In this document: one piece after another, positions 1 through 33,685 of the stretch | Position numbering within the stretch: the stretch's first letter is position 1 | Layout of the letters: each line of letters starts with the position of its first letter | Origin: a bacterium | Lineage (GTDB): Bacteria; UBP14; UBA6098 | Assembly: GCA_003645085.1 (NCBI GenBank) | Contig: QNEE01000006.1 | Location: forward strand, 1 to 33,685 | Direction of reading: 5' to 3' | Length of the DNA: 33,685 nucleotides | Program-made: the position numbers and the translations under genes | The notes under the pieces: model-generated | Told to the model about the DNA's origin: nothing | Seen by the model: the letters and a program-made list of their open reading frames with translations, nothing else | Databases searched by the model: none

Positions 1-2560
1 CCTCGTTTGCCACGCGGTCGAGTCCGGCACTTATATTCGCGCCGTCCTCTGAAAGCGACCTGGCGATATCGGCGCTGCGAGGGTCTCTGGCGATAGCGCC
101 GAGTAGTTCCTCCTGCCGAGCGGAAAGGTCGAGAAGACTGAAAACCGCTCTCCGAATAGCGGCGAGAACCTCCTGGGACAAGGCCATTTGCATTTGTTGC
201 ATCATCTGGCTTAATTGTTCCGAGGTCTGGCCGAACTGCTCGGATAAATCCCCGGCCTGGCCAGAACATTGTTTCATCGCGCCTGATTGCATACTCGCTT
301 TGCATTGTTTCGACTGTTGGCTCGGGCTGTTTTGTTTAAGGTTCTCTGAAAGTTGTTGCGCGGCACCGGCAGGCATATCCGGAAATTCTGACATCATATC
401 GGCAAGCTCTTCGATACCTTTTTCGAGCAGTTCGCTACCCTGTGTAATCCTGTCCTGCATCCGTTCCATATCGTTCTGGGACATATTTCCGTTTTCGAGA
501 CCGTCCCTGACCTTATCTTCCATTTCCTTAAGCTTATCGGCGAGAGCTTTCATATCCTCGATTCGCTGTTCGACCTGCATCCGTTTGAGTAAGGCCAGAG
601 TCCGGTCGAGGCGCTGCAGAAGCTCTTCCTGGGTAAGCTGGAATTGTTCTGCTGCTCGGCGCAACTCTTCCTGGTCCATCGATTGGAGAGCCTCCTGAAG
701 CCGTTTCATTGCTTCACGCATCTCCTCGGTCGCCACCTCGTCGAGGAGTTTTTGTATCTCCATCATTTTCTCGATAACCTCCATCGCCGCAAGCTGCTGG
801 TCGGCCACTTTTTCCGTGGTTTGCTGGTATTCTTCGGAGGTTTGTTCGAGTTGTTCGAGCAATTCCTGTTGACGTTTGAGGGCCTCGCGGAGGTCCTCGC
901 GCTGCTCGTAGCTAATCTCGCTTTCCTGTCTCATTTCGCGGGTAAGTTCTCTTAGTTCTTCCTGCAGTTCCTGCTCCTGCCTCGCGACTTCCTCGACATC
1001 GGTTATCTGCTCGCTGCGTTCTTTGGTTACCTCTTCGATTATCTCGTCGATACTGGGGAAACGCGCGGAATAGACGCGGCTTACGGCCTTTTTGGGGCCG
1101 GTTACCCTATCGTTATCGAAAACCTCGACCCAATAGAGAACGATATCGTTCGGAACGAGACCCATATTCGCGAGGTTCCAGATATAACCGAGGCTAACCT
1201 GCGGTTCGCCCAAGGCGTCGAAAGGCAACCGTATCCGCCCGGTATCTTCGGGGGAATCCTCGGTATAGTAATTCAGGTCGAAATGGGTGAACCCGTAATC
1301 GTCCTCGGCGAGTATGGACAGCGGTAGAAGCATATCTTCCGTAAGGTCGATATCGACTCCCGGGTTCGTTATCTCGACCGTCGGGTATTCGTCCATTCGG
1401 ATACGAATCGGGTATTCGATAGGGTCGTCGTTCTCGAGGCCTTCGGTATCTATTGCGCGTATATGATAGCTCCCGTGTTTTATCGCGCGGAAAGACGCTT
1501 TTGCGACTCTGTTTTCGATTTTCAGGTCGAGTTGTGTAGTATCGGAGAAAACAATCGTCCCCGATTGTAGTTTTTTTGAGAACCGAGCTTCGATTGTTAC
1601 GGTTGTCCCGTAAGGGACATCGATTGTGCCCTCGTTCTCTTCTAATCTTTGTGTCTCGAGGCCGGTATAATTCGGGTAGTTGAGAATAAGGGTCAGTCCT
1701 ACAACGCGCGGGCGGTCGACAATTTTGACCTCGAACGGTCTGCTTTCGAAATCTCCGCCGGTAACGCGATAGGTAAAGTCCCGTTTACAATCCTCGAAAA
1801 CGAAGCTCCAGTTGTGAATTTCGTTAGCGTTCTGTTCCGCACGGAAACCACGTTCCGAACCGCTTTCGAAACTACGGTAGACAGTAACTTCTTCCGGGAG
1901 CTTACCGAAGGAGGATATCGAAATTTCGAGATTACCATATTTGGTTACCTGCGTATCCCCCGGTTCGACACTGAGAGTGGTAAGCGTCGGTCTTGGTATA
2001 AATCCGAACGGATTGGAACCGCGAATCAGGCCGGTATGAAAGGTCGTAGGGAAAGCTGCCAGAAAGCCGACCAGTAGAATCAACGCGAAACCGAGAAACG
2101 CGAACCGCTCTCTTAGTATGCGTAACGGCGCCAATTTACGCGGATTAAGGCTTTCGATTTGTTTGCCGGTGTCCGATACCGAGGCGTCGACAAGTTCGGA
2201 GGAGTAACCGAGCCTTTCGGGGTCGATTTTCATTAAGTCGTAAGCGGATACAAGTCTCGATTCGAGCTGCGGATAGGTATCCTCGAGACCGATGGCAACG
2301 CGCCGATAACCGGGCGTTTTAATAAGTGGACGGAATACCCACAGAAGAACAGATACGATAACTACAGCGAGCCACAGGAAAAAGAGAGCGCTTCTCGCTC
2401 CCGTTTCCAGATAAAAGACACCGTTGAAAAGGACCAGCAAAACCGATAATATCGATATAGTCCCCAACGCGAGTATAGCTCCTCCGGCGGTATAGACGAG
2501 AGTAGACCAGGCCCTTCCTTTCGATAAGAATTGCAGTATTTTGTCTTTTGCTTCGGTCAT
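1..2560 (-). CDS. DUF4175-like membrane protein with long Gln/Glu-rich coiled-coil C-terminal half (partial, runs off left edge)
   Basis: Reverse strand is open from ATG at 2560 (MTEAKDKILQFLSKGRAWSTLVYTAGGAILALGTISILSVLLVLFNGVFYLETGARSALFFLWLAVVIVS...) to position 1. N-terminal TM segments, Ig-like middle, then coiled coil (EQEQELQEELRELTREM..., QQLSENLKQNSPSQQSKQ). Absent from the ORF track because it is truncated at the window edge. Confidence 0.8.
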   Translation of the reverse strand, partial: MTEAKDKILQFLSKGRAWSTLVYTAGGAILALGTISILSVLLVLFNGVFYLETGARSALFFLWLAVVIVSVLLWVFRPLIKTPGYRRVAIGLEDTYPQLESRLVSAYDLMKIDPERLGYSSELVDASVSDTGKQIESLNPRKLAPLRILRERFAFLGFALILLVGFLAAFPTTFHTGLIRGSNPFGFIPRPTLTTLSVEPGDTQVTKYGNLEISISSFGKLPEEVTVYRSFESGSERGFRAEQNANEIHNWSFVFEDCKRDFTYRVTGGDFESRPFEVKIVDRPRVVGLTLILNYPNYTGLETQRLEENEGTIDVPYGTTVTIEARFSKKLQSGTIVFSDTTQLDLKIENRVAKASFRAIKHGSYHIRAIDTEGLENDDPIEYPIRIRMDEYPTVEITNPGVDIDLTEDMLLPLSILAEDDYGFTHFDLNYYTEDSPEDTGRIRLPFDALGEPQVSLGYIWNLANMGLVPNDIVLYWVEVFDNDRVTGPKKAVSRVYSARFPSIDEIIEEVTKERSEQITDVEEVARQEQELQEELRELTREMRQESEISYEQREDLREALKRQQELLEQLEQTSEEYQQTTEKVADQQLAAMEVIEKMMEIQKLLDEVATEEMREAMKRLQEALQSMDQEELRRAAEQFQLTQEELLQRLDRTLALLKRMQVEQRIEDMKALADKLKEMEDKVRDGLENGNMSQNDMERMQDRITQGSELLEKGIEELADMMSEFPDMPAGAAQQLSENLKQNSPSQQSKQCKASMQSGAMKQCSGQAGDLSEQFGQTSEQLSQMMQQMQMALSQEVLAAIRRAVFSLLDLSARQEELLGAIARDPRSADIARSLSEDGANISAGLDRVANE

Positions 2561-3243
2561 CAGTGGGTCATAGCGTAGATTATTATATTCGTGCCCATTT
2601 TCAGCGCGGCCTCCCTTTTTTCGGGCGGGTCCTTATGGACATCGGGGTCCTCCCAGCCGTCGCCGAGGTCGCACTCATAGGTATAAAAGATAATCAATCT
2701 TCCTTCGTGAAAAATCCCGAAGCCCTGCGCTGGTTTGCCGTCGTGCTCGTGGATTTTAGGCAAACCGTGCGGGAAATCGTAAAAACAATGGAATATCTCG
2801 TGGTCGAACGGGAGTTCCACAAGCTCTTTATCGGGGAATATTTTTTCGATTTCCCTACGAAACGACGCATCCATACCGTAGTTGTCGTCGGCGTGAAGGA
2901 AACCGCCGCCGGTCAGGTAAGTTCTCAATCTTTCGCGTTCTTTTTCGGTAAAACGGACGTTGCCGTGGCCGGTCATATAAATATAGGGATAGTTGAAAAA
3001 ATCGTCGTCGGTCGGTTCGACATATTTACCGGTATAAACTGCCGGAACGCCGGCGTTGTCTTTTACGAATTCGATAAGGTTCGGCAGCGAAGATGGATTG
3101 GCATACCAGTCTCCTCCACCGCCGTATTTAAGCTGCGCAACGGTAAAAGGGACATTGGGTATCGCGTCTTCGGAAAAAAGCGCGCCCGAAAAGAGAGCAA
3201 AATACAGGATAATCGATTTATATTTTTGTTGGATAAGCAGAAT
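2560..3243 (-). CDS. DUF4159 domain-containing secreted protein; start codon uncertain
   Basis: Translation upstream of the tracked ORF (2560..2976) stays in frame: KYKSIILYFALFSGALFSEDAIPNVPFTVAQLKYGGGGDWYANPSSLPNLIEFVKDN...FNYPYIYMTGHGNV..., a signal peptide followed by the DUF4159 N-terminal motif. In-frame TAA lies at about 3271. Stop overlaps the next gene's ATG (TGATG). Confidence 0.8.
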   Translation of the reverse strand: MLLIQQKYKSIILYFALFSGALFSEDAIPNVPFTVAQLKYGGGGDWYANPSSLPNLIEFVKDNAGVPAVYTGKYVEPTDDDFFNYPYIYMTGHGNVRFTEKERERLRTYLTGGGFLHADDNYGMDASFRREIEKIFPDKELVELPFDHEIFHCFYDFPHGLPKIHEHDGKPAQGFGIFHEGRLIIFYTYECDLGDGWEDPDVHKDPPEKREAALKMGTNIIIYAMTH

Positions 3244-3366
3244 TACCCCCGTTTTAGCCGCGTATAAAAATCGTTATATTATACAAATTAATAAAAAAAA
3301 GTCAACGCCTAAACGGAATATAATCGTGGATAGATATATCGACAGGGATTATCTCGCGCGAGGGTT

Positions 3367-4362
3367 TTATTTGCGCGATGTGGCGTTCGGGACAATACGG
3401 TAAGTGGGATATGCGAGGTCGATATTTTTCTCTTCGCCGAAATCTTGAAGTATCGCCTCGTAAAGCTGTGATTCTTTTGAACGCCGCATTCTGACTGGTG
3501 TAAGGAATCTCGCGGTCAGCTTAACTCCATTGTCTTCGATAGTGGTGTAGACAATCGGTGTAAGCGTTCCGACCTTGATAAGGTATCTGTTTTTTGTTGA
3601 CCGAATGGCCTCGGCGGCCCTTTCGGCGGTATCTGCGGAAATCTCTTCCGCCCGTTTCGTGATAATATCGACTGCCGTTTTCCAGTCGCTTTCGAAGGTT
3701 ATTATCACTGCAACTTCCACCCAGATAAAACGGAAGCCCGTAGTATAATTATAGACTTTATGAGTAAAAAGCCAGTTGTGCGGGATATTCACCAGCCGCC
3801 CTGTGGATTGTTCGCCTCCGACCCAACCGTCGATTTCCAGCAAGGTCGTGTGGAAGACGCTTATATCGACGACATCTCCTTTGAGGTTTTTTATTTCAAT
3901 CCTGTCGCCGAGCGAGTAATGGCGCGAAACCGCGAGATATAACCAGCCGGCGACCGAGGTCAACGGGTCTTTAAGCGCCAGAGCGACTCCCGCGCCGATT
4001 ATGCCCAAAAATGTGGTGAAACCGGAGACGACCTGCGCCCAGATTGTCGCTACGAGAATAATAGCGAGAACAGTAGCGCCATAGACGGTTCTTTTACGCG
4101 CGGCATAAAGCGCCTTCGCGTCGCGAACCCATTTATCGAGAAGGCGGTAGATAATCCTGGTGAGTATATAGACGACCGCAACCGCCAATACGGAGGCCAG
4201 CAGGTTCTCGGTAAAATATGCCGTAGGGAAATCGAACATTCTACCGATAATATCGCTTCCGTTTTCGGCAATGTCAAGCAGGTTAATGGATGGTTTTCGA
4301 GGGTTTCGATTTTTTTGTGGAAACTCCCCCTTTAAAACGGCTTGACAAATAACGTTTCGCAT
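3367..4362 (-). CDS. MscS family small-conductance mechanosensitive ion channel
   Basis: 331 aa; TM helices then MscS pore/beta signature (FLGIIGAGVALALKDPLTSVAGWLYLAVSRHYSLGDRIEIKNLKGDVVDISVFHTTLLEI). True start may be the internal Met before FDFPTAYFTEN (about 4239). Confidence 0.88.
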   Translation of the reverse strand: MRNVICQAVLKGEFPQKNRNPRKPSINLLDIAENGSDIIGRMFDFPTAYFTENLLASVLAVAVVYILTRIIYRLLDKWVRDAKALYAARKRTVYGATVLAIILVATIWAQVVSGFTTFLGIIGAGVALALKDPLTSVAGWLYLAVSRHYSLGDRIEIKNLKGDVVDISVFHTTLLEIDGWVGGEQSTGRLVNIPHNWLFTHKVYNYTTGFRFIWVEVAVIITFESDWKTAVDIITKRAEEISADTAERAAEAIRSTKNRYLIKVGTLTPIVYTTIEDNGVKLTARFLTPVRMRRSKESQLYEAILQDFGEEKNIDLAYPTYRIVPNATSRK

Positions 4363-4370
4363 TTTAATAT
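4342..4370 (+). promoter_or_regulatory. Candidate sigma70-type promoter for the OMP gene at 4423
   Basis: TTGACA (4342-4347), 17-nt spacer, TAATAT (4365-4370). Confidence 0.55.
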
Positions 4371-4422
4371 CTATGAAATTTTGGCGAATAAAACAATCAA
4401 AACCCTTTCATAAGGAGGGAAA

Positions 4423-5619: not shown

Positions 5620-5640
5620 AGAGTTACATAATTATACCTA

Positions 5641-5678
5641 ATAACAAAAAAGCTGCCTTCGGGCGGCTTTTTCGTTAT
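5641..5678. terminator. Bidirectional intrinsic terminator between convergent genes
   Basis: ATAAC-AAAAAAGCTGCC-TTCG-GGCGGCTTTTTC-GTTAT: strong stem with UUCG loop and A/T tracts on both sides; contains the stop codon of the minus-strand gene. Confidence 0.85.
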
Positions 5679-6175
5679 CTTTTTTTGCTCAAAATATATC
5701 GAATTCCCCCGCGAAGGCTTATCGTCGTGGTCGATTCGCGTTCGCCGGTTAAATCCGACGAAGAGAGGATTACAAGCAATTCACCGAACGGTCGGAAGGG
5801 TTTATCCCCCATCTTGAATTCTATACCTCCGCCGAGTGTCATGCCGAGATTCGTATAATCTTTGATACTACTCAATTGTAATCCGCCGACGGCGTAAGGG
5901 TCGAAGGTTTCCATCGGAAATCGATATACTATATTTAGCGACTGCCCCGTCCCGAAATAGACCCCGGCGTCTGGCGAAAAGGTCAATGTGAATACTCTCG
6001 CGCGGAGCCGAATATCGTCGGTAACATCGAGAAGCGCTCCTCCGCCGACCGAAAAGGCGCTTCCGCCCTCGACGATATCCAGGTCGACGCCGCTTTCGAG
6101 GGCGAGGTTTAATTCTGCTGGTGTTATTACCGCGCAGAGAACAACGAGGATGCCGACTAAAGAGATTTTTCTCAT
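5675..6175 (-). CDS. Small outer-membrane beta-barrel-like protein
   Basis: Start at internal Met (MRKISLVGILVVLCAVITPAELNLALESG) preceded by GGAG; signal peptide, then alternating-residue strands with aromatic/Gly content. Confidence 0.6.
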   Translation of the reverse strand: MRKISLVGILVVLCAVITPAELNLALESGVDLDIVEGGSAFSVGGGALLDVTDDIRLRARVFTLTFSPDAGVYFGTGQSLNIVYRFPMETFDPYAVGGLQLSSIKDYTNLGMTLGGGIEFKMGDKPFRPFGELLVILSSSDLTGERESTTTISLRGGIRYILSKKR

Positions 6176-6287
6176 AGTTTCTCCGTTCTTTGTTTGGAAC
6201 TTCGACTCGTTGCGTAGCTCCAACTGCGTAACGAATCGGCGTAACCAAACCAGAGCTTGTTATGGGATACAGGATGTATTCAATTTA

Positions 6288-7421: not shown

Positions 7422-7439
7422 TTAGTCGCCTTTCGATAA

Positions 7440-8150
7440 TTATTTCAGGAGCTGCCACGCATTGCGATATTTCGCATACTTGCTGGGTGGTTCCCCGCTG
7501 CGTTTGCGGCGGTAATCGGAATATCTATCTTTCAGGGTAATCAGGGTAAGGTGTTTAATCTCCTCGAAAGGGATTATATAGTAAGTATATCTATCGTTAC
7601 CCTCTTCTTCCCCGAGGTCGAGCACGAATATACAATAATCCACCGGGCGGCTAGTGATAGCGAAACGGTAGTAGATGCTTGGTCTGCGCTTACGCGGAAT
7701 ATGATAAATAGTTTCCGTATTGGTTCCGGAAATATTCACCATGTTCTCGTTTATTTTCATTTTAACCGCGCTGTTGCGTTTAGCGATAAGCTCGACATTA
7801 TATCCGAGTTGTTCCGCTTTATCTTTCACGACCTTTGTATAGAACGTTTTCTTGGCGCTGCGTTCTTTCCCCTGTTTTTTATATTCTTTAAGGCGAGCGG
7901 TCAGGTCTGTGCTGCGGCGTCTCGCCTCTCTCGCGCGTTTATCCTTGCGTTTCATCTGTATTTTGTTATACGGTTCGCCGAAGAAGCTGCGGTATAGCCC
8001 GGCTGTGTTCTGTCTGCTGAAGCCAAAATGTGCGCCTATTTCCTCGAGAGTGCGAAGTTCGTCTACCATTTGCTTAAATTTGGCAAATCCTCCCTTATGG
8101 CGATATTTCTCGTCAAATCGCGCGATTTTCCGGTCTCTGCTCATTCTCAT
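7440..8150 (-). CDS. Orphan HTH protein with possible inactivated PD-(D/E)XK-like C-terminal domain
   Basis: 236 aa; SD AAAGGAG 9 nt before ATG; HTH-like LEEIGAHFGFSRQNTAGLYRSFFGEPY; C-terminal YYRFAITSRPVDYCIFVLD...YTYYIIPFEEI pattern. Confidence 0.7.
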   Translation of the reverse strand: MRMSRDRKIARFDEKYRHKGGFAKFKQMVDELRTLEEIGAHFGFSRQNTAGLYRSFFGEPYNKIQMKRKDKRAREARRRSTDLTARLKEYKKQGKERSAKKTFYTKVVKDKAEQLGYNVELIAKRNSAVKMKINENMVNISGTNTETIYHIPRKRRPSIYYRFAITSRPVDYCIFVLDLGEEEGNDRYTYYIIPFEEIKHLTLITLKDRYSDYRRKRSGEPPSKYAKYRNAWQLLK

Positions 8151-11304: not shown

Positions 11305-11312
11305 ACTATAAA

Positions 11313-13363: not shown

Positions 13364-14443
13364 ATGAGTTTGTGGAAAGTTACAATATCGGTTATAGTCT
13401 GCCTGATTGTTTTTATTGTCGGTTGCGGGCGTAAATCCTCATATGAAACGGCCGAGGTGCTTTTCGGAGAAATAATAGAATCGGACGACCATTACGCACC
13501 ACAGATAATGGCCAATAATTGGGAGACGATGGATATTCTCCGGGAGGCATACCACAACGACCCTGACGACGAACGCGTCAGGTCTATATTCAACACCTTT
13601 TACAGCAGCCGGTTCGACTTGACCTTAGAGGAATCGTTATCGAAATCTATGGATATAATAATCGAATACGGCTCTAATCTTTTACGGTTAACGCCGAAGG
13701 ACGGGATACTTCTCGTATATCACGAGCAAATATATTATCCGGTTAGATACGCGCAGGATATAGATGGTGTTAATCCTGATATTCCGGTTATTTGCGGCAA
13801 ATTCTTGCCATTTAAGCGATATAGAGATTATCTTTCCGCGCGTTATGGTTTATGTTTTCCCTACGGTTTTCCGACGGTAAAAAGCGCCGACGACGAGGAA
13901 TATAAGTCGACCACTGTAAATGGATTAAGGTGGGTGGCGGATTCTCTGGGAAAACCGGTTCTTATCAACATGAATATGCCTTTAGAGGCTCGACCGGCAA
14001 ACGGGGCGTTGACGTATGGTTTCGGGAAACTTTACGGATTGCCTCTGACAAACGAGGAAATTAAACAGAAGAACCTCGAGTTCTATTCTTCTGTTCTTGT
14101 TTTCGATGCTGTTGCGGATACGACGTTTATGCTTCCTAATCTCGTCGAAGGAATGGTTCAATGGTATGCGGAAGCGCCTTTAGTTCAGGCTACTCACTGG
14201 CTTGCCGATGGCGATACGGCGTTTGTGGACACGCTTTTAAGTGTCCTAATAGAAAGGCTTCCGAGTTTTTGGAGACCAGCGAGTTATTATTTTTTCCTTC
14301 ACCCTGAACTTTCGGGGCAACCTAGGGAAGAGTTAATTGCCAGAATAGAAAGGTTCATTAAATTTAACCCGGACAAGCGGAACGCTCAAAACACCCTCAA
14401 GGGGATTTTAGCTACCGAGGGAAACACAGGCGAGGAAAAATGA
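13364..14443 (+). CDS. Putative lipoprotein of unknown function
   Basis: N-terminus MSLWKVTISVIVCLIVFIVGCGRKS has a lipobox-like IVGC; 1-nt gap to the upstream stop; ATGA overlap with the downstream gene. Confidence 0.75.
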   Translation: MSLWKVTISVIVCLIVFIVGCGRKSSYETAEVLFGEIIESDDHYAPQIMANNWETMDILREAYHNDPDDERVRSIFNTFYSSRFDLTLEESLSKSMDIIIEYGSNLLRLTPKDGILLVYHEQIYYPVRYAQDIDGVNPDIPVICGKFLPFKRYRDYLSARYGLCFPYGFPTVKSADDEEYKSTTVNGLRWVADSLGKPVLINMNMPLEARPANGALTYGFGKLYGLPLTNEEIKQKNLEFYSSVLVFDAVADTTFMLPNLVEGMVQWYAEAPLVQATHWLADGDTAFVDTLLSVLIERLPSFWRPASYYFFLHPELSGQPREELIARIERFIKFNPDKRNAQNTLKGILATEGNTGEEK

Positions 14444-17400
14444 CCCCAGAAAAACGCGTAAACGCCGGCGGTTTTTACGAGCATTACCAATCTCTAATAA
14501 CGGATAGGTTTGTAGGCAGGGAAGAGGCTCTCGCGCAGGTCGCCGAGATTTTACAATATCCTCGTCGCGGCAAGGGGATGCCCGTGGTTGTGATAACAGG
14601 TCAATCCGGTAGCGGTAAAAGCTGGTTATTGGCCAGGATTTCGCAAAAACTATCGGATGAGATGCTGCCGTTTATCCCGATAGATTTGCGCACTACCGTT
14701 CAGGAAACGCTTCCCGGAGGTTTTGTTCATATAGCCAACGAGACGACAAAACGGGTAAGCATTAAGACGCCGCGTCTTAACAAGGTTTTGGATATTTATC
14801 TTAAGCGTTTTATGGGCATAACTACCGACCCTGTGGAAGATTCGGGCGGTTTTTTTCGGGGAATTATCAGGTCTCTACGCGGTGAACCAGACGAGGATGC
14901 AATAGAGGCGACCGAATTGAGCAGAATTTATGGCGAAAACTGGGATGAGATACTCCCGGGCAGACCGCTTTACGAGCATCTAAAGGCTATGGCTATAGCA
15001 TTAGCAGAGGATATCGACAGTGGTTTAGAACGGACGAAATATCCTTTTATTACATTGCTTTTCGATTCGTGGGAGGATTACGCTAACCGTTTCGCGTCAC
15101 ACTGGTTCCGGTTATTTGATACAGCCAACAGGCTTTTTGTAATAATAGCAACGTGTCATCCTCCGGAAAACCGCGAGTTTATCAACATAACGCTCGGGGA
15201 TTTCGACGATACCGAGGCCAGCACCGTTCTCGAAAGAAGAGGTATCGGTTCGGGGCAAGCTTGCGCGAGAATAATTGGGAATACGGGGAATAATCCTCTG
15301 GCTATTTCTCTGGCGGCTTCGCTTGCGGACACTTTGACGCGCAAAGGGGATATTATTCGGAGTAATTCGTTCGATATCGGGGAGGATTCCACCGCCGTCG
15401 AGGAGTATTCGAAAAATACGTGGAAAGGTCTTCGCGAGTCGGAGCAATACGCTCTCGCTGCGTGCATCCGCGGGGATGGTCTACCTATCGGGATGTTCGC
15501 CGAGCTTTTCGCCCAAAGAGCCGACTTATTGCCGAGTTTGATTGTGGTATCCGGTTTTGTTCCTTTCGACCCGGTATTGTCGGGCACGTCGCCGGTTAGA
15601 TTGCATCGTCTATTAAAACCGATATTCGAGAAACTGTCGATGGATGTTACCCTTCCAACAGAGGCAGACCTTGCGGAGAGAACGAAGCGCCTTATGGGCC
15701 GGGACGACCATCCCGCCTGGGAGACTGCTCATACAAAACTCGATATGCGTATCGAACCTGAAGAGGCTTTCAACGCTGCAATCGAGCAAGTAATAGGTCT
15801 CGTTATGTTCGGCGATTTCGACCAGGCCGAGAGTCTCTGGCGGTCGGCTCGGCCGGTTTCGAATAAAAGGGGATTGGCCGCTGTCCATTGTGTTATCGGT
15901 AATCGGCTTATTGCAGATACCTTTTCGAGTGATGAACGCGTGGAATACTTCGGTTCGTTCGAGTCGGACGACACTATTTACGACGGCGCTTACCGTATCG
16001 AATATGCGCGAGCCGTGGCGGACAATGGCGATAACGAAACCGCTTTGAAAGAACTTCAGGATTGTGTAAGCGCACTATCCGGTGCTATCACCGAAACATC
16101 CGGCGGTGAACCCGCGTTGTGGTATTTGCGCGGCAGGGCATTGCATCTGGCGGCGGAGCTTATCAATCGGGCTGGAGTGCCAAAAGAAGCTATCTCTACT
16201 GGAGAGAAAGCTCTGGTTTCTTTTGACAGAGCTATTAATAGCGGTCTCGACCCGGCAGGATTGATATCGATTGATTCTGCCCGGACTACTGTGTTGATGG
16301 CCGAAGCCGAAAGCTCGTTTGGAGACCTGAAAGGAGCGTTGAAAAGACTCGATAAAGCCCGCGAATCTATTTTTAGGGCTATCGAAAAAAGGAGTGTCTC
16401 ATTGCCGGACATAAACCTGCTTGCAGCAGAAATACTATATTATCGCGGAAAAATACACAAGCTTGCGGGTAACTGGACGGAATCGGAGGAGTTTTTCAAT
16501 TCTGCTCTGGCAGAACTTAAGAATATAAATAATTCGTTCGTTCAACCGTCCGCGGAAGGCGAACTATTCGCAGGGAAAATATATCTCGCTCTTGCGGAAT
16601 TGATAGAAAAGACTGGTTCGGAAGAAACGGCTATCGAGGTTATCGGGCGAGCGCAGGATGCCTTTGCCCGCTATGAGGAATTAATCGGCGGTAACGACCC
16701 CGCTGGTTGGATAGGGCGCGGGAAAGCGCTTCTTATAAAAAGCAATCTACTTTCTATGGATGACACAGAAGAGGCTATCTCATCGGCTCGCGAGGCACGG
16801 CGATATTTTGAAAAAGCTTGGGATAACGAGAGTTCTCTGGATGCAGCGGCATGCGAGATAGACGCTCTTATATTAGAAGGCGATTTGCTTGCTGAAGATG
16901 ATAAACCGTTTGATGAGTTATTCGATAAGGCGGAGAAAACTCTTATTGCAAAACTGGATACCCCGGCATCCAGAGTTCAGTTTTTGAAGCGGTGGGTAAA
17001 ACTCGCGAAATCGCGTGGACGGGCGGCTTATTTAAATTCAGACCACGATACCGCCACACGTTATTTTGCGGATGCTATCGAGGGGTATGAAGATTTACAT
17101 AATATCGCACCGGAACAGCTTTCGATAGCGGATTTGGCGGAGATTCAACTTGCCTCGGCGATAGCGCTTCGCGCGGGCGGTGAGCCGTATAACGCTTTCC
17201 AATCGTTAATTCGCGCGGAGGAGGCTTTCGAAATTGCTGCCGATAAATCCACAAATGAGGGTCGGCGTAAGGTTTTACGCGCGAGTATCGGGGTATATAA
17301 CGACCTCGAATCGACCGGGCACGACGAGGAGGCTTTCGAGGCGGCGCTTTTCGTTCTCGAACTTATCGCACAGATAGGCGGGCAGGAGGTAATGGAGATT

Positions 17401-17508
17401 GGCCACGAATTACTCGTATTCTGGGAAGCTCAGGGCCTTTCACTAGCCGACAGTCGCCGGCTGGAACAGGTTGCCGCCCCGTTGAGGGAATATTGGGGCG
17501 AAACCTGA
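14440..17508 (+). CDS. STAND/AAA-type P-loop NTPase with C-terminal TPR-like helical repeats
   Basis: 1022 aa; DRFVGREEALAQVAEIL...VVVITGQSGSGKSWLLARI (Walker A), FITLLFDSWEDY (Walker B-like); long alpha-helical C-terminal two-thirds with TPR-like periodicity (YYRGKIHKLAGNWTESEEFFNSALAEL). Confidence 0.78.
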   Translation: MTPEKRVNAGGFYEHYQSLITDRFVGREEALAQVAEILQYPRRGKGMPVVVITGQSGSGKSWLLARISQKLSDEMLPFIPIDLRTTVQETLPGGFVHIANETTKRVSIKTPRLNKVLDIYLKRFMGITTDPVEDSGGFFRGIIRSLRGEPDEDAIEATELSRIYGENWDEILPGRPLYEHLKAMAIALAEDIDSGLERTKYPFITLLFDSWEDYANRFASHWFRLFDTANRLFVIIATCHPPENREFINITLGDFDDTEASTVLERRGIGSGQACARIIGNTGNNPLAISLAASLADTLTRKGDIIRSNSFDIGEDSTAVEEYSKNTWKGLRESEQYALAACIRGDGLPIGMFAELFAQRADLLPSLIVVSGFVPFDPVLSGTSPVRLHRLLKPIFEKLSMDVTLPTEADLAERTKRLMGRDDHPAWETAHTKLDMRIEPEEAFNAAIEQVIGLVMFGDFDQAESLWRSARPVSNKRGLAAVHCVIGNRLIADTFSSDERVEYFGSFESDDTIYDGAYRIEYARAVADNGDNETALKELQDCVSALSGAITETSGGEPALWYLRGRALHLAAELINRAGVPKEAISTGEKALVSFDRAINSGLDPAGLISIDSARTTVLMAEAESSFGDLKGALKRLDKARESIFRAIEKRSVSLPDINLLAAEILYYRGKIHKLAGNWTESEEFFNSALAELKNINNSFVQPSAEGELFAGKIYLALAELIEKTGSEETAIEVIGRAQDAFARYEELIGGNDPAGWIGRGKALLIKSNLLSMDDTEEAISSAREARRYFEKAWDNESSLDAAACEIDALILEGDLLAEDDKPFDELFDKAEKTLIAKLDTPASRVQFLKRWVKLAKSRGRAAYLNSDHDTATRYFADAIEGYEDLHNIAPEQLSIADLAEIQLASAIALRAGGEPYNAFQSLIRAEEAFEIAADKSTNEGRRKVLRASIGVYNDLESTGHDEEAFEAALFVLELIAQIGGQEVMEIGHELLVFWEAQGLSLADSRRLEQVAAPLREYWGET

Positions 17509-25741: not shown

Positions 25742-28700
25742 CTACTTAACCAGCGTCATTTTCCGGGTTTCGTTGAAATCGCCGGCAACGACTTTATACA
25801 GGTAGATACCGCTCGGGAGTTCGTGACCGCCGCCGTCGCGAGCATCCCATATAATACGATGCCAACCGGCATCCAGCGACTCGTCGACCAGCGTGGTAAC
25901 TTTTCTGCCGAGTATGTTGAACACCTCGACCTTAACATCGGTCTCTTCCGGCAGAGCGATAGTGAATTCGGTCGTTGCGTTGAACGGGTTCGGCTTGTTC
26001 ATAGAAAGCGCGAACTCCTCCGGCCGCCTCGGCTTAATACCCAGAACACCCTCGTCGGTAAGTATGACGCTGAATACGCGGATTCCGCTCCCGAAAGTAA
26101 ACGTATATGAAGTGTCTTCGCGCATATCTATCGTAGTGCCTGTGGCCTGGTCGACCAGAGTTAAACCCCATCTTTCGTCGAGGTTATCCACTCCGCAAGA
26201 AGCGTCGTCCCCGGTCGGGGTTCTGTCTTTCGGCCACTCCAGCGTAACTTCCATACCGGCGGGAATATCGCGAACCTTAAACGTCCACACCTTACTATCG
26301 CTGGAGAAGTTAGCTTTCGTATCGCGCATCAACCTTAAGCCACCGGTTTCGAAATACGCGTCTATGGTGTTAACCGGCAGGTTTATATTCGGCTCGCGGA
26401 CATCCCAATCGTCGAATCCGTCGAGAGCGGTCTCGTTCACTCCGATATAATTATAGATATCGGTTCTGACGTCGCTGCCCTGGACACCCTTGGCAGAGAC
26501 TCTGAGCATAAACTCGGCCGGATTGAGCGTTTTAACCTTGGGTGCCGGTTTCGCTTTCGCCGCGAATGTTTCGAGAGCGCCGTCCATAGGATATATAATA
26601 TCGGTATAGACGGCGGGGTTACCGTCGCGTGCGTAGATATAGTATCCGCGCCAGGCGTCGATATACTCGTCGGCACCGCCGCCTCCACCCAACGGGTCGT
26701 AGAACGCGAAACCATCTTTTTCGCTCCAGGTCCAGTAATAGCGGTCGAGGTATGTGAAGTCGGTCGCGGCATAGACAGCATCCCAACTAACCCTCATATC
26801 GAACGGGTTACCGACTACCCACCAGCCCCAGTTCGGGCTGCCTACAGGATAATATACGGGATAGGCGAAGTCGCCGTCCGCAAACGGGGTGCCGTAGACA
26901 TCCCAGTAGGTGCGGTCGAGCCAGGTTTTCAGGAAATACCCTTTACCGCGGACGAATCCGGTCGGTAGTTCGTTGAGTCCTGTATCCTGATTATATCCAT
27001 AGATATTCGATGCCGACGGCGTAACGTTGAACGGGACAATATCGTCTACGAGTTGGATATACGGGTCGTTCGGGGTCGCGTTCAACGGAACACTTATAAT
27101 CTCCCAGCCGGCATAGGCTCTCGGTTGAACCTGAACACAGGTCGGAATCGTATATGGCGGAATGTTATCGCCGGGGTAGAAATATAGGTCGAAGCAGTAA
27201 TCGCCTACAGGAGTGGAATATTCGTGATTGATTATCGCGAACGTTACGCATTCCCCGGGAGCGATAAAGCCAGTCGTCGGGTCGACGTAAATACCGCCGG
27301 GTAATGGGCAATTTGGTGATTCTATAGAATAAACCTTAAGTGTGTTCATATTGGTAACCCAGATACGACAATTGTGGTCGACCTCGAGTCCCGCTAACGC
27401 ATAACCGCCAAGCCAACCAGCACCGGGCGCTTCGATTTCGTTGATTACCGTGCCGGTTGCTGGTTCAATTTCGTAAATCTTATCCGCAGGTTCATTTGCG
27501 GCGAACCATATAGTTCTTCGACTGGGGTCAAAGCCGATACCGGCGCAATTCGGGGCAGAATATGTATTCATCACTTCGCCCGGAACGTCCCAGTCTTTAC
27601 CCTTTATTTCGTAGATAAGGTTATCGTTCCAACCGCCGACATAGAATACATCGCGGGAGAAATCGTAGCCGACGCCGCGTTGTGAAGCCGCGGTCCAGGG
27701 TAAGGTAAAGTCACCAATCGAATCTACAATATCTCCCGTAACAACGTCGAAAGCGTATAGGAAGTTACTGCCTCCAACAGCGATCTGCCACATTAAGCGA
27801 TGATTGGCGTCCCATGCCATATCGCCCATCCACGAAGAACTTCCTACGCCGGTAACATCGACGGTAAGACCGGTATAAAGACCGGTAAGAACATCGAATT
27901 GCTGGTTATTGCACATTAACGAAATGCCTTCGACATTACTTACCCAGAAGTTAGTTATTTCGAGTCTATCGTATAACCCCAGACCCCAGGGCATATCGCA
28001 AACTGCGTTAACATCGAAACTATCGACGACATCGCCGAAAGCAGATGGTCTCGCAGATGGGCCGGGCACACCGCTCGGAATTCCAGCACGATACGCATTA
28101 GGGTCTACGGGTGTAACGGAGCCTTTATCTACGAAGGTTTCTTCTTCGACGAACATCGGGCGCGCCCTGGAACCACCGCCAACCGGGACACCTGTAAAGT
28201 TAAACCATATTGTATCGTCGGTCGGATTGCATATCTCGAAATAGACGGAATCGTCCTCGTTGTATGTCAAGTGCCCGTAAATTTCATCGACGTCTATCGG
28301 GCAAATCGGAACAAGAACCATCGCGGTATCGTCGATAAATACTACTACATCCTCGTATCCGGGGAAATATCCTAATTTAACGGCCATAACAGTATTATCG
28401 CCATACCCTACTTGCGGAATGAAGAAATACCCGGTAGAATCGGTATAAGCGACATAACCTCCGGTTCGGACCTCCGCATTCTCGATGACATCGTAAGTAT
28501 TGCAGTCGTAGACATAGCCCTCTATAGCCCCCGTAGGTGCCGGGTAATACATAAAGTCGTCCACATACCACCCGGCATCGGTAATGCTGCCATCGGAACC
28601 AAAGTGGAACCTGATATGCGATACGTCGGGGGTGAGGTCTATCCTTTGCATAAACCATTCGTCGAATCTCAAACCGGAAGACCAGCAATCTTCACCCGGA

Positions 28701-31078
28701 ATACCCGCATTAGCGCCATCGGCGACAGCGTTATAGGCTGTGTCCAGCGGTGTAGCCAATTCCCATGTTAGACCTCCATCCCTCGAGACTTTCACGTTTG
28801 CGCCGTCGTAGATATACTCGGTAATCAACCACTGATACCATGCAAACCTTGTGCAAGGATATGGTAAGGCTATATCGAGTTTACAATTTGCGCTAATGTC
28901 GTAATCGCCGTCGAGAACTGTGCCCCAGCAATTCGGTGCTGTGTGTGCGCTCGGCGGGCCATAAGTTGGGGTGCCCCATTCCCAGCAACCTGTCAGAGGT
29001 GTAGGTAGAGCGCCTCCGTCGTCGGTATCGACACTATCCCACTCCGGAACCAGAGGGTCGAGAAGCAGCGGGCCGAATATAGTATCGATATCGACCGTTT
29101 CGCCGACCGCAACAGAAAACACAGGAGTATAAGCCGTAATATAGCCCGGATATGTGCCTACGACCTGAATATCGCCCGCGTCGACGCCGTCGAGGAAGAA
29201 CGCTCCAGTGGCGTCGGTTACGTCGTTGACGCCGGAGACGAGTTCAGTAACAGCTATGCCGGCATCGGGACCGGGGACGTCCGTTAGGTCCGCGGTTCCG
29301 GTAATAAAGGCTACCGGGCGTTCGTCGAGTGTGAAATCGATTTCTACCGAGTCGTCCTCGACAACGACGACCGCGAATACCGTTTCGGCATAGAACGCAG
29401 GATGAGTGCAATAAACATCGAAGGTTCCTGCGGGAATGCCCGATATGCGGTAATAGCCGTCGATAGCGGAGATATCGTTATACGGGAATCCTACGAGGCC
29501 GACCTCCGCGCCCGAGTGGTCGGTGCGCCCGGAAAGCGTTACGTGCCCGTAAACAGTGCCCGAAGGCGGTGGAACGGTGCAGTAACGGATAGTCCGGGTA
29601 GTCGAGGTTAGGCCGAGATAGGATGGGTCGCCGTAGGTGCCACCTTCGTGCAGGTATGCGATACCCTCGCTTCCGTCGAAATTCTCCACACCCATCTCGA
29701 TATCCAGAGGGTCTTCGGGAAGACCGTTGAAGCGGACGTCGATAGCGCAGTTACCGCCCGGTGTAGGTATAACTGTCGGGTTCCAGATTTGAACCTGGCA
29801 ATCGAAGTATGCGCTGCCGCCGTATTGGCGCCAGTTTTCGAACGAGAAAAGAACATAGTCTCCCATTGGTTCTAGATATAAATACGCCCAGCCGTCGGAA
29901 CCCACCAGGTCGTCCCAGACCCAGGCGATGAAATTATCGAGCTGACCGCCGGGAGTCGGTATAAATTCGGGGGATAAGTAAGAACTCGCGGGGGCGGTCG
30001 GGTCGAATAAAATCCACCCGTTCGAGCTGAGCCAGGTGGTATCTCTCCCGACGCCGTATAGGACGAACGGGAACGGGAACCCAAAATAGCCGGTAACCGC
30101 ATCGTCGGCCTCGATTGTGGTCATTTCGATTCCGCTAGTAGCGTCTATCCACGTCGGGTCGGGGCTCATCGGGTAGCCGGTGCCGTCCTCGTAGATATAG
30201 TAACCACCCAGCACCTCGAACGAGCAGGTCCCGCTCGAACCAGTGTTCGCCGGAATAAAGGTATCGGTTGCCCTGAATAGATAGTCTATTACGCTCCAAC
30301 CCTCGAGGTCGGTGAAATCGTAATGATAATCGCCTGTGCCGTCGGGTAAGCCGCTGTCATAGACGAGATTATCGCAGACCCACGGGTCGCCGTTTATGCT
30401 GTAGCATATCTCCGCCGATAACGGGTCGATTCCGGTAAAATCGTTAATATAGACGCCAACCGTAACATCGGTTGTTCCGGAAGGATATACGGAGTCTGCG
30501 CAGGTATATGAGAAACTCGGCGGCGCGGGTTCGCTTGGCGGCGTATAGCCGTAAATAGTAACGTCGTCTAACGCCCAGTGGTAATCCCAGTTATTGTCAT
30601 ACCAGAAACAGACCTTACAGGTTGCACTGCTAGAAGTAAAGGATTCGATATGATACCTCGAGTGGACAACATCCAGTTCGGTTCGACCGTAAGAAATCGC
30701 GGTTGCCCACGTAGCACCGCCGTCGGTGCTAACGAGGATATAGGCTTCACCTGTGGACGAGCCGAACAACTCATAGTCCTCCCACATATCGACGATAACC
30801 GAGTCGTATCCACCCGAGGCGTCGAAGACCGGAGTGAACAGCGAGTCGTCGTTATCGACTTCGTAATCGACATAGGCGCTGAGCGCGCCGATAGTGAAAC
30901 CGGTGAGGAACTGGCTGTGCCAGTCTTCAGCGCCGACATAAGGCGGGTTTTGTGACCAGCCGGCGGGAATCCAGGCGCCCTCGAAACCCTCCGTAGGCAG
31001 AAGTGTAACTTCGGTTTGCGCGAATGCGACAAGGACCAGGGCGAGAATACCCAAAACGGAAATAAACGTGAGTTTCAT
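25742..31078 (-). CDS. Large secreted multidomain protein: jelly-roll/MAM-like domains, carboxypeptidase-regulatory-like repeats, beta-propeller-like segment, FlgD-Ig/T9SS type A C-terminal sorting domain
   Basis: 1778 aa; signal peptide MKLTFISVLGILALVLVAFAQ; EGFEGAWIPAGWS...; CarboxypepD_reg-like GHVTLSGRTDHSGAEVGL...; C-terminus PNPFNATTEFTIALPEETDVKVEVFNILGRKVTTLVDESLDAGWHRIIWDARDGGGHELPSGIYLYKVVAGDFNETRKMTLVK. Confidence 0.88.
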   Translation of the reverse strand: MKLTFISVLGILALVLVAFAQTEVTLLPTEGFEGAWIPAGWSQNPPYVGAEDWHSQFLTGFTIGALSAYVDYEVDNDDSLFTPVFDASGGYDSVIVDMWEDYELFGSSTGEAYILVSTDGGATWATAISYGRTELDVVHSRYHIESFTSSSATCKVCFWYDNNWDYHWALDDVTIYGYTPPSEPAPPSFSYTCADSVYPSGTTDVTVGVYINDFTGIDPLSAEICYSINGDPWVCDNLVYDSGLPDGTGDYHYDFTDLEGWSVIDYLFRATDTFIPANTGSSGTCSFEVLGGYYIYEDGTGYPMSPDPTWIDATSGIEMTTIEADDAVTGYFGFPFPFVLYGVGRDTTWLSSNGWILFDPTAPASSYLSPEFIPTPGGQLDNFIAWVWDDLVGSDGWAYLYLEPMGDYVLFSFENWRQYGGSAYFDCQVQIWNPTVIPTPGGNCAIDVRFNGLPEDPLDIEMGVENFDGSEGIAYLHEGGTYGDPSYLGLTSTTRTIRYCTVPPPSGTVYGHVTLSGRTDHSGAEVGLVGFPYNDISAIDGYYRISGIPAGTFDVYCTHPAFYAETVFAVVVVEDDSVEIDFTLDERPVAFITGTADLTDVPGPDAGIAVTELVSGVNDVTDATGAFFLDGVDAGDIQVVGTYPGYITAYTPVFSVAVGETVDIDTIFGPLLLDPLVPEWDSVDTDDGGALPTPLTGCWEWGTPTYGPPSAHTAPNCWGTVLDGDYDISANCKLDIALPYPCTRFAWYQWLITEYIYDGANVKVSRDGGLTWELATPLDTAYNAVADGANAGIPGEDCWSSGLRFDEWFMQRIDLTPDVSHIRFHFGSDGSITDAGWYVDDFMYYPAPTGAIEGYVYDCNTYDVIENAEVRTGGYVAYTDSTGYFFIPQVGYGDNTVMAVKLGYFPGYEDVVVFIDDTAMVLVPICPIDVDEIYGHLTYNEDDSVYFEICNPTDDTIWFNFTGVPVGGGSRARPMFVEEETFVDKGSVTPVDPNAYRAGIPSGVPGPSARPSAFGDVVDSFDVNAVCDMPWGLGLYDRLEITNFWVSNVEGISLMCNNQQFDVLTGLYTGLTVDVTGVGSSSWMGDMAWDANHRLMWQIAVGGSNFLYAFDVVTGDIVDSIGDFTLPWTAASQRGVGYDFSRDVFYVGGWNDNLIYEIKGKDWDVPGEVMNTYSAPNCAGIGFDPSRRTIWFAANEPADKIYEIEPATGTVINEIEAPGAGWLGGYALAGLEVDHNCRIWVTNMNTLKVYSIESPNCPLPGGIYVDPTTGFIAPGECVTFAIINHEYSTPVGDYCFDLYFYPGDNIPPYTIPTCVQVQPRAYAGWEIISVPLNATPNDPYIQLVDDIVPFNVTPSASNIYGYNQDTGLNELPTGFVRGKGYFLKTWLDRTYWDVYGTPFADGDFAYPVYYPVGSPNWGWWVVGNPFDMRVSWDAVYAATDFTYLDRYYWTWSEKDGFAFYDPLGGGGGADEYIDAWRGYYIYARDGNPAVYTDIIYPMDGALETFAAKAKPAPKVKTLNPAEFMLRVSAKGVQGSDVRTDIYNYIGVNETALDGFDDWDVREPNINLPVNTIDAYFETGGLRLMRDTKANFSSDSKVWTFKVRDIPAGMEVTLEWPKDRTPTGDDASCGVDNLDERWGLTLVDQATGTTIDMREDTSYTFTFGSGIRVFSVILTDEGVLGIKPRRPEEFALSMNKPNPFNATTEFTIALPEETDVKVEVFNILGRKVTTLVDESLDAGWHRIIWDARDGGGHELPSGIYLYKVVAGDFNETRKMTLVK

Positions 31079-31132
31079 CCGTAACCCTCCTTCTTGGTTG
31101 GATGATTGTTTTTGTAGTTAGGAATTTATCTT

Positions 31133-31161
31133 AAAATATCTACGCTATTTGGCATTGTCAA
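31133..31161 (-). promoter_or_regulatory. Candidate sigma70-type promoter of the 1778-aa protein gene
   Basis: Minus strand: TTGACA (31161-31156), 17 nt, TATTTT (31138-31133). Confidence 0.6.
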
Positions 31162-31312
31162 GGTATTTTTATGATTTACGATATTAGAAAAGGAATTTTA
31201 TTCCGGGTAGTCATTTAGTAAAATCAGGAGATATCAAAATACAAGAAGGAAATTGCATTTTAGCCGTGCACTTCCAAGGAAAATAAAAATAAGGTAATTT
31301 TAAGATTATATA

Positions 31313-31340
31313 TTGAAATACAGAGATTTTAATATATAAT
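31313..31340 (+). promoter_or_regulatory. Candidate sigma70-type promoter of the C1 protease gene
   Basis: TTGAAA (31313-31318), 16 nt, TATAAT (31335-31340). Confidence 0.45.
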
Positions 31341-31407
31341 TTAAAAATAAGAAATCCTTTAAAATCGATGGAAAAACAGAAGGGCAATCGAGCTTATGGA
31401 CGGCCAA

Positions 31408-33685
31408 ATGAAATTAAAAGTCTTATTAGGATTATTTGCGATAACAGTATCTATGTTGTTCGGAGCCGTAACGCTTTCGACGCACGGGGATTCGGTAATA
31501 GCGGAGTTCGACCCGTTAGAGGGGCAGTTACCGATAGGGTGTATTTATATCGGCGACGACTACCTCGCGAAGATACCCCCGGAGGTTTTCCCGGCGGGTA
31601 AAGTAACCGTCCCGACCGTGGATATTCTCGAAGCTATCGACGGCAGCAGCGAGTTTGAAATATTCGTTTTTCTCGAGACCGTTACCTTCGGGGACACATC
31701 GAGAGTTATCCAGGGCGCGGTTTTCAGAGTCGGAATCGGACAAACCGAGATAAGATTCAAGAAAGCAGGCGAAACTGCACCGTTTGCCGGATTGAGCGAT
31801 TTTGTTTTCGGACGGTTCACTAAATTAAGAAATATCCGCGACAAAATCGAGACCCGCGGCCTTAGGTGGACTGCGGACCTGAACCCTATTTTTATGTTGC
31901 CTGATGGGGATTGGCTAAGGCTTCTCGGCACAAAGCCGCGACCGGATACGACTATCCGTTCGCGTGAGGACACCCCTCGAGAACGTCCGATGATACCAAC
32001 AGACCTCGATTGGCGCGATAAAGACGGCTATAATTGGGTTACGCCAATAAAGAACCAGGGTTACTGTGGTTCCTGCTGGGCTTTTTCAGTCGTAGGAACC
32101 GCCGAATCGGAGTTCGTAATCGGACTGGCTCGACCTAGCCTCAGAAATACTCTGGACCTCGCCGAGCAACATACGGTTTCCTGCGACCATACGTGCTGGC
32201 CGCCGCCATACAGCAGTTATTGCAACGACGGTTGCGACGGCGGTTATACCAATCTTGCAAGCGATTTTTTACGGGATACCGGCGTTCCCGACGAGGCCTG
32301 TTTCTCTTACGTCTCCGGTGCGTCTGGATATGAACCACCCTGTAGCGACCGTTGCGCGGATTGGGCAAGCCGCGTTAAAAAAATATGCAGTTGGAGTTGG
32401 ATAAACGAAGGGGACAACGTCGATGTTACAACCGTTAAAAACGGTGTCCAGGATGCCCCACTTTCCGTGTGCATGAGAGTCTGCTCGGATTTCTCATCTT
32501 ACTCGGGCGGTTTGTATGAGAATACCTGCGGTTCGACCGGTTGGGAGGGTTGGCACGCGATTATTCTTGTCGGTTATAACGACGACTATGGCGGCTATTG
32601 GCGGATGAAAAATAGTTGGGGAACATCGTGGGGAGATAACGGTTTTTGCTATCCGGCTTATACAGAGTCGAATTACGGCGAATCGAGATTCGGGACCGAT
32701 GCACTTATACATAACTATTATCTCGCCGCCGATTTTTCCTATAGTCCGCCTTCGCCGGGAACGGGAGAGACGGTCGATTTCACCGACCTCACCAGCCATT
32801 GCCTTTCTCTGGTTAGCTGGAGCTGGGATTTCGGCGACGGTATCGGGTCCTCCTCTGCACAAAACCCGAGCTATTCGTATCCATCGAGTGGGAGCTTTAT
32901 TGTCGAATTAATCGTTTGCGACGCCAATAATTTCTGCGATACCGTTACCCATAGCATTACGGTTACGCCGAACGAACCGGATTTATATTATCACTCTCAC
33001 GTTATCGACGACGGCCTGGGCGACGGTGACGGTTACCCCGAAGCGGGGGAGTCGATTATTATGCCGATAAGTCTCGAGAACGCAGCTGGTAGCGCGACCG
33101 CAGTAAATGTAATCGGCAACGTTACCGAATCCGACCCGTATGTGAATTTCACCGATGCGAACCTCGATTGGCCGGATATCCCTGCTGGGGAATTCAGACA
33201 ATCGAACTCGAATCACGTGCGGTTCGATATTGCCGACGACGAGGCGACCTGCGACCATAATGTAACGTTCACGGTCAACTGGGACTGCGAGGGCGGGACC
33301 TATACCGGTTCGGATAATTTCGTCGTCCTGCTCGGCTGTCCCGACCCGCAGCTCGAATATCAAAGCCATGTTATCGACGACGCTGTCGGCGGGGACGGCG
33401 ACGGTTACCCAGAGGCCGGAGAGACGATAGTCCTGCCGGTAACTTTGCGTCATATAGGCGGAGCGGGCGCGGATAATGTTACCGGAACGCTCGATGAATC
33501 GGACGCTTATATCAGCATAACCGACGCTAACGCCGACTGGCCGAATATCGCCATCGGCGGCTCCGAGCAATCGAACCCGAACCATTTCGAGTTCCAGATA
33601 GACCCTCTTACGCCAGACGGGCATATCGTCGATTTCACTGTCGATTGGGATTGCTATTGCGGCAACGGCAGCGACGGTTTCCAGA
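31408..33685 (+). CDS. Secreted papain-like (C1A) cysteine protease with PKD domain and tandem Ig-like repeats (partial, runs off right edge)
   Basis: Open frame from ATG 31408 (or in-frame ATG 31396): MKLKVLLGLFAITVSMLFGAVTLS...; catalytic motifs NQGYCGSCWAFS, GWHAIILVGY, KNSWGTSWGDNGF; PKD-type LVSWSWDFGDG...NPSYSYPSSGSFIVELIV. Absent from the ORF track because no stop occurs in the window. Confidence 0.9.
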   Translation, partial: MKLKVLLGLFAITVSMLFGAVTLSTHGDSVIAEFDPLEGQLPIGCIYIGDDYLAKIPPEVFPAGKVTVPTVDILEAIDGSSEFEIFVFLETVTFGDTSRVIQGAVFRVGIGQTEIRFKKAGETAPFAGLSDFVFGRFTKLRNIRDKIETRGLRWTADLNPIFMLPDGDWLRLLGTKPRPDTTIRSREDTPRERPMIPTDLDWRDKDGYNWVTPIKNQGYCGSCWAFSVVGTAESEFVIGLARPSLRNTLDLAEQHTVSCDHTCWPPPYSSYCNDGCDGGYTNLASDFLRDTGVPDEACFSYVSGASGYEPPCSDRCADWASRVKKICSWSWINEGDNVDVTTVKNGVQDAPLSVCMRVCSDFSSYSGGLYENTCGSTGWEGWHAIILVGYNDDYGGYWRMKNSWGTSWGDNGFCYPAYTESNYGESRFGTDALIHNYYLAADFSYSPPSPGTGETVDFTDLTSHCLSLVSWSWDFGDGIGSSSAQNPSYSYPSSGSFIVELIVCDANNFCDTVTHSITVTPNEPDLYYHSHVIDDGLGDGDGYPEAGESIIMPISLENAAGSATAVNVIGNVTESDPYVNFTDANLDWPDIPAGEFRQSNSNHVRFDIADDEATCDHNVTFTVNWDCEGGTYTGSDNFVVLLGCPDPQLEYQSHVIDDAVGGDGDGYPEAGETIVLPVTLRHIGGAGADNVTGTLDESDAYISITDANADWPNIAIGGSEQSNPNHFEFQIDPLTPDGHIVDFTVDWDCYCGNGSDGFQ
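32980..33685 (+). repeat. Two tandem ~120-aa repeat domains inside the C1 protease ORF (second copy truncated)
   Basis: Copy 1 from 32980 (LYYHSHVIDDGLGDGDGYPEAGESIIMPISL...), copy 2 from 33349 (LEYQSHVIDDAVGGDGDGYPEAGETIVLPVTL...); shared VIDD..GDGDGYPEAGE, TDAN.DWP.I and QSN.NH motifs. Confidence 0.85.

What the first reader, a model, noticed from the sequence alone, without database searches (positions are those of the whole stretch)
1..33685. Near-total absence of GATC (one copy in 33.7 kb)
A manual scan of every ATC and its preceding base found GATC only at 27782-27785 (CGATCTG, inside the 1778-aa protein gene). About 130 would be expected at even base composition. The flanking contexts AATC, TATC, CATC and the permutations ATCG/CGAT are common, so this is not loss of ATC or GAT in general. 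It implies constraint on codon choice (GAC before C-initial codons; ATA/ATT after G). Avoidance this strong usually reflects long exposure to a GATC-specific nuclease (MboI/DpnII-like) or another GATC-recognising process.
Basis: partly seen in the sequence, partly recalled or inferred. Interest (0 to 1): 0.75.

Follow-up and report, generated by a model that had tools for sequence, protein, structure and literature searches.

The report
Genome nearly emptied of GATC
This uncultured bacterium has removed almost every GATC, and almost every GTAC, from its whole genome, most likely because restriction enzymes that cut those words lived in its lineage for a long time; the effect is known, but here it is unusually strong, hits several words, recurs across the bacterium's relatives, and no GATC-cutting enzyme could be recognised in the genome today.

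Summary
Confirmed and extended. The window has one GATC (27782) where about 148 are expected, and no GTAC where about 74 are expected. The loss is genome-wide: in 1.32 Mb of this 2.67-Mb MAG, GATC is 103 of 5760 expected (0.018) and GTAC 110 of 2486 (0.044). It runs through synonymous codon choice. All 15 tRNAs examined lack both words; the 16S gene keeps three GATC. Residual sites cluster in lower-GC, probably acquired stretches, including defence genes. The host carries at least nine restriction-modification (R-M) loci. Milder avoidances match some of them: GTSAC with a Tsp45I-family enzyme, GTWWAC with a methylase of that type, CCWGG with MvaI/BcnI. Relatives of the same class have lost up to eight of the 16 palindromic tetramers, in different sets. 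Best explanation: selection against self-restriction by a long-resident Type II R-M. The cognate GATC system was not found: no DpnII, MutH/Sau3AI or DpnI family gene. It is lost, unassembled, or of an unrecognised family. Known kind of phenomenon, extreme degree.

The parts
1..33685 (.). Chromosomal window depleted of GATC (1 against 148 expected) and GTAC (0 against 74); CTAG and CATG also low
   Evidence: Markov-corrected counts; Karlin Kr; same depletion across the other contigs read
27782..27785 (+). The only GATC in the window
25742..31078 (-). Gene of the 1778-aa secreted protein (CarboxypepD_reg repeats, weak C-terminal secretion-sorting domain) that holds the single GATC

Best explanation
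The genome was purged of GATC (and GTAC) by long selection against self-restriction: an orthodox Type II R-M system recognising GATC, and another recognising GTAC, lived in the lineage. Because methylation of every site is never perfect, each unneeded site carried a cost, and mutations removing sites, mostly synonymous, were fixed. Shown: the genome-wide depletion, the synonymous route, the retention of sites in 16S rRNA, the clustering of residual sites, an R-M-rich genome, and matches between other avoided words and R-M enzymes present. Inferred: that GATC and GTAC had their own R-M systems. Not shown: a GATC or GTAC enzyme in the genome today. For GATC the system is most likely lost, or sits in the unassembled 10%, or belongs to a family not recognised here. 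For GTAC the best, weakly supported candidate is the resident Type II R-M on contig C28 (L046 5039-6948).
For: Only these palindromes approach zero: GATC 0.018, GTAC 0.044 over 1.32 Mb. Synonymous codon choice carries it. All 15 tRNAs examined lack both words; their T-arms read TTCGAATCC, TTCGAGTCC and the like. The 16S gene keeps three GATC, at positions that are near-universally conserved (from general knowledge). Residual GATC and GTAC co-occur in the same 1-kb bins (Fisher p 7e-5), and GATC-bearing bins have lower GC (0.468 against 0.497), as recently acquired DNA would. At least nine R-M loci. Site-enzyme matches: GTSAC 0.45 with Tsp45I family E 1.8e-125; GTWWAC 0.54 with a methylase domain matching PDB 8urk at E 2.9e-116 and Burkholderia homologues at about 65%, where BCAM0992 methylates GTWWAC (PMC7364216); CCWGG 0.60 with MvaI/BcnI family E 1.2e-61. 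In relatives, MjaI-type enzyme with CTAG 0.11 and 0.05; DpnII-family genes in G009, G010, G015 with GATC 0.04, 0.12, 0.04. Published survey: orthodox Type II sites avoided in 48% of cases, and avoidance can outlive the system.
Against: No recognisable GATC R-M in the MAG. Five GATC-avoiding relatives (G004, G011, G012, G014, G016) also lack a DpnII-family hit. The resident systems on C16 and C61 have homologues in genomes that do not avoid GATC or GTAC (G032 over only 3.85 kb; G005, G008), so they are probably not the cause. The C28 candidate was not detected in G001, G002 and G004, which also avoid GTAC. The CCWGG match is weak: the MvaI/BcnI family includes both CCWGG and CCSGG enzymes. The site-enzyme matches were picked after both lists were seen.
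Confidence: 0.85

Rival explanations
1. Sub-case of the best explanation: a functional GATC R-M is still present but belongs to an unrecognised nuclease family or lies on unassembled contigs.
For: The MAG is 89.93% complete; the avoidance is near total, suggesting recent or current selection; several R-M-like genes have unknown specificity.
Against: The sole clear D12 methylase has no adjacent nuclease and resembles AlwI-linked enzymes. The long-resident systems with unknown specificity on C16 and C61 are argued against by their homologues.
Confidence: 0.4
2. Sub-case of the best explanation: trace of a lost GATC R-M; the enzyme left the lineage and the sites have not yet returned by mutation.
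For: Published precedent for traces of lost systems. This genome keeps a shortened 131-aa version of a methylase whose full-length relatives in G001 and G002 sit beside an EcoO109I-type nuclease, showing R-M loss in the lineage.
Against: A ratio of 0.018 leaves little room for mutational return, so any loss would be recent.
Confidence: 0.45
3. Methyl-directed (DpnI-type) restriction, or avoidance of GATC to ease DNA exchange between strains of different methylation status.
For: In the published survey GATC was avoided in 38 of 42 genomes with Type IIM enzymes of that site.
Against: No DpnI-family match above cut-off in 17 genomes, none at all in the own genome. It does not explain GTAC.
Confidence: 0.05
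4. Mutational bias: a methylated cytosine in GATC (GATm5C) deaminates and erodes the site.
For: One C5 methylase exists.
Against: Deamination would convert GATC only to GATT and AATC. TATC and GATA are at least as over-represented, although removal of GATC inflates all neighbours. The C5 methylase gene itself holds a GATC and its partner gene three. It does not explain GTAC.
Confidence: 0.04
5. Library or assembly artefact, such as GATC-cutter digestion before sequencing.
For: Only a MAG is available.
Against: Many GATC-free stretches of 20 kb cannot be made by filtering a normal genome; codon choice is adapted; GTAC, GTSAC and GTWWAC are also depleted; GATC sits inside contigs in 16S and acquired genes; relatives in other records show similar losses.
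Confidence: 0.01

Closest known systems
Restriction-site avoidance by orthodox Type II R-M systems (Rusinov and co-workers 2015, PMC4687349)
   Same: Short palindromes strongly under-represented, genome-wide; other R-M enzymes with matching avoided sites in the same genome; traces of lost systems expected
   Different: Kr of 0.018 for GATC and 0.043 for GTAC against a threshold of 0.78; cognate GATC enzyme not found; up to eight palindromic tetramers lost in one relative
DpnII/MboI (GATC) R-M family
   Same: The avoided word is its recognition site; family members occur in class relatives G009, G010 and G015, which avoid GATC
   Different: No PF04556 gene in the window's own genome
Methanocaldococcus jannaschii, with GATC, GTAC and CTAG R-M systems (from memory, not tested here)
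   Same: The same set of avoided words in one genome
   Different: There the cognate enzymes are known; here they are not identified for GATC and GTAC

Membership tests
Type II R-M site avoidance | Palindromic site far below corrected expectation across the whole genome | tested here: met
Type II R-M site avoidance | Removal by synonymous change, with retention where the sequence is constrained | tested here: met
   codons; 16S and tRNA
Type II R-M site avoidance | Newly acquired DNA less depleted than resident DNA | tested here: met
   clustered residual sites with lower GC; acquisition itself inferred from composition and gene type
Type II R-M site avoidance | Cognate R-M genes for GATC in the genome or a close relative | tested here: inconclusive
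   none recognised in own genome; DpnII family in class relatives G009, G010, G015
DpnII/MboI-type R-M in this genome | DpnII-family endonuclease (PF04556) | tested here: not met
   no match at E up to 1 in G000
DpnII/MboI-type R-M in this genome | Dam-like D12 methylase next to the endonuclease | tested here: not met
   single clear D12 methylase at C1:37.8-39.0 kb without adjacent nuclease
Sau3AI/MutH-type R-M in this genome | MutH-family endonuclease (PF02976) | tested here: not met
DpnI-type (Type IIM) in this genome | DpnI-family endonuclease (PF06044) | tested here: not met
Type II R-M site avoidance | Methylation of remaining sites by a cognate methylase | not testable with these tools
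   needs long-read kinetics

The most novel reading that the evidence does not exclude
The class to which this bacterium belongs is a natural record of successive four-base R-M sweeps, in which lineages gained and lost restriction enzymes so often that up to eight of the 16 palindromic tetramers (ACGT, AGCT, CATG, CTAG, GATC, GGCC, GTAC, TCGA in relative G014) were driven almost out of the genome; and the GATC purge here was caused by a GATC nuclease of a family not yet described.
Probability: 0.2. Interest if true: 0.65.

Novelty: new member of a known kind. Interest (0 to 1): 0.45.

Why it matters
If right, simple word counts date and name R-M systems that a lineage carried, even when the genes are gone. 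Here near-total loss of two four-base words, and different losses in sister genomes, make the time course of restriction pressure testable across one bacterial class. It also warns that GATC-based methods (Dam-type methylation calls, DpnII or MboI Hi-C and digestion libraries) will fail on these organisms.

Tried and rejected
DpnII, MutH and DpnI families as the culprit: not in the genome. D12 methylase as Dam: no PDB match at E up to 0.001, no partner nuclease, a homologue beside an AlwI-family nuclease. C16 system (L241): its nuclease homologue at 55% lies in G032, where 3.85 kb of sequence shows normal GATC and GTAC. C61 system (L079): methylase orthologues at 64-66% in G005 and G008, which do not avoid GATC or GTAC strongly. 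C28 nuclease against plasmids: no match. Taxonomy name UBP14: not in NCBI taxonomy. Two literature searches for class-wide palindrome loss returned nothing on point in their listed results.

Full report
Observation. The window holds exactly one GATC, at 27782-27785, against 147.9 expected from trinucleotide and dinucleotide counts; it is the most depleted of all 256 tetramers. Karlin's Kr, the measure used in the published survey of restriction-site avoidance, is 0.011 for GATC in the window, where 0.78 is the usual threshold.

Genome-wide test. The window is contig C6 of a 2.67-Mb, 268-contig MAG. I read 1.32 Mb of it. GATC is 103 of 5760 expected (0.018), GTAC 110 of 2486 (0.044), CTAG 0.25 and CATG 0.38; the highest GATC counts are in two contigs with acquired-looking genes or rRNA (C47, 9 of 57; C196, 6 of 20). 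Among 62 named background loci of at least 10 kb, mostly from other phyla, the lowest GATC ratio was 0.14 and the median 0.74.

How the words were removed. In 836 gene-like reading frames the choice is synonymous and context-specific. Asp is GAT in 1.1% of cases before C but 34-76% before other bases. Ile is ATC in 0.55% after G but 39-50% after other bases. Ser is TCN in 1.3% after GGA but 51-78% after other Gly codons. Tyr is TAC in 1.7% after G but 40-48% otherwise. None of 15 tRNA genes holds GATC or GTAC. The 16S rRNA gene (L065 10762-12330, minus strand) keeps three GATC, at the start (AGAGTTTGATCCTGGCTCAG), near position 1379 (GCTGATCAGCA) and at the 3' end (GGATCACCTCC), and five GTAC. 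I know these GATC positions to be near-universally conserved; that part is from general knowledge.

Residual sites. They are clumped (variance to mean 1.6 for GATC in 1-kb bins). GATC and GTAC share bins more than chance (Fisher p 7e-5), and GATC-bearing bins are lower in GC (0.468 against 0.497). Genes with several sites include an 809-aa protein of unassigned family, a Type IIG-like restriction-methylase (L071 10038-13490) and the nuclease of the C10 R-M pair. This is what recently acquired DNA would look like; acquisition is inferred from composition and gene type. Some secreted-protein genes also hold sites, so this is not the whole story.

The host's R-M genes. A whole-genome search found 13 N6/N4 methylase matches, one C5 methylase and one clear D12 methylase. 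The loci include a Tsp45I-family pair on C1, a DUF6996/DUF6997 nuclease with a CcrM-like methylase on C10, an unassigned nuclease-like gene with two methylases on C16, a Bpu10I-family pair on C242, a methylase with an N-terminal nuclease-like extension on C117, an MvaI/BcnI-family set on C58, a PADLOC Type II pair on C28, a pair on C61, a methylase fused to an Mrr-like domain on C130 (by eye), a C5 methylase with an ATPase-type Type II restriction protein on C187, and a shortened methylase next to an HNH nuclease on C55.

Matching avoided words to enzymes. GTSAC is at 0.45 of maximal-order expectation, and the genome has a Tsp45I-family nuclease (E 1.8e-125); Tsp45I cuts GTSAC (general knowledge). 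GTWWAC is at 0.54, and the C117 methylase domain matches PDB entry 8urk at E 2.9e-116 and Burkholderia homologues at about 65% identity; Burkholderia BCAM0992 methylates GTWWAC. The equation of 8urk with BCAM0992 is from memory. CCWGG is at 0.60, and the C58 nuclease is MvaI/BcnI family, a family that covers CCWGG and CCSGG. CTNAG is at 0.65 beside a Bpu10I-family nuclease, only a loose match. These were picked after seeing both lists, so they support the mechanism and do not prove each pair.

Relatives. Four genomes of the same family all avoid GTAC (0.08, 0.05, 0.16, 0.00) but avoid GATC less (0.52, 0.77, 0.62, 0.22), so the GATC purge is strongest in this genome and the GTAC one is family-wide. 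In the same class, several genomes have lost four or more palindromic tetramers; G014 has eight at or below 0.07. Sample sizes are 11-65 kb per genome, small for some. Enzymes match in relatives too: MjaI-family nuclease in G002, with a homologue by eye in G001, and CTAG at 0.05 and 0.11; DpnII-family genes in G009, G010 and G015, all GATC avoiders. Named records place the lineage near UBP14 UBA6098 and a record labelled Zixiibacteriota.

Which enzyme removed GATC? None was identified. DpnII, MutH/Sau3AI and DpnI families are absent. The D12 methylase stands alone and resembles AlwI-linked enzymes. The C16 and C61 systems have homologues in genomes that do not strongly avoid either word; the C16 argument rests on 3.85 kb. 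The C28 nuclease occurs in G003 and G016, with short matches in G006 and G012; all of these avoid GTAC to some degree (0.16, 0.00, 0.45, 0.18), and its genes in this genome hold no GATC or GTAC, so it is a candidate for GTAC, though G001, G002 and G004 avoid GTAC without a detected copy.

Conclusion. Long selection by restriction is the best explanation, with the mechanism supported by the pattern and the particular GATC enzyme inferred. The phenomenon is known (Rusinov 2015, PMC4687349). What stands out is the degree, the number of words lost and the recurrence across the class.

Noticed in passing
window 1-33685: GTAC is completely absent (0 against 74 expected), and genome-wide at 0.044; avoidance is shared by the whole family.
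   Followed up: yes
L097, L136, L153 (relative G014): Eight of 16 palindromic tetramers (ACGT, AGCT, CATG, CTAG, GATC, GGCC, GTAC, TCGA) at or below 0.07 of expectation in 14.7 kb; other class members have lost different sets.
   Followed up: partly
L081 2217-3686: A methylase matching PDB 8urk (GTWWAC type, by homology) with an N-terminal nuclease-like extension sits between yidC-like and small yidD-like/rnpA-like genes, inside a conserved housekeeping operon.
   Followed up: partly
L073 9911-11232: Shortened methylase (131 aa) whose full-length relatives in G001 and G002 pair with an EcoO109I-type nuclease, here followed directly by an HNH nuclease: a possible remnant of a lost or replaced R-M system.
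   Followed up: partly
own genome, 1.32 Mb read: GRGCYC (BanII-type word) is at 0.44 and GGWCC at 0.60 of expectation with no enzyme assigned.
   Followed up: no
window 7440-8150: 236-aa protein with no Pfam or PADLOC match above threshold, between the ferredoxin-domain DUF362 gene and a helicase-exonuclease gene.
   Followed up: no
window 14440-17508: 1022-aa AAA/STAND-like NTPase with repeat-rich C-terminus next to a gene of unknown family.
   Followed up: no
L258 and L259 (relatives G002, G003): EcoRV-family nuclease with D12 methylase (Pfam-tested in G002; similar pair by eye in G003).
   Followed up: partly
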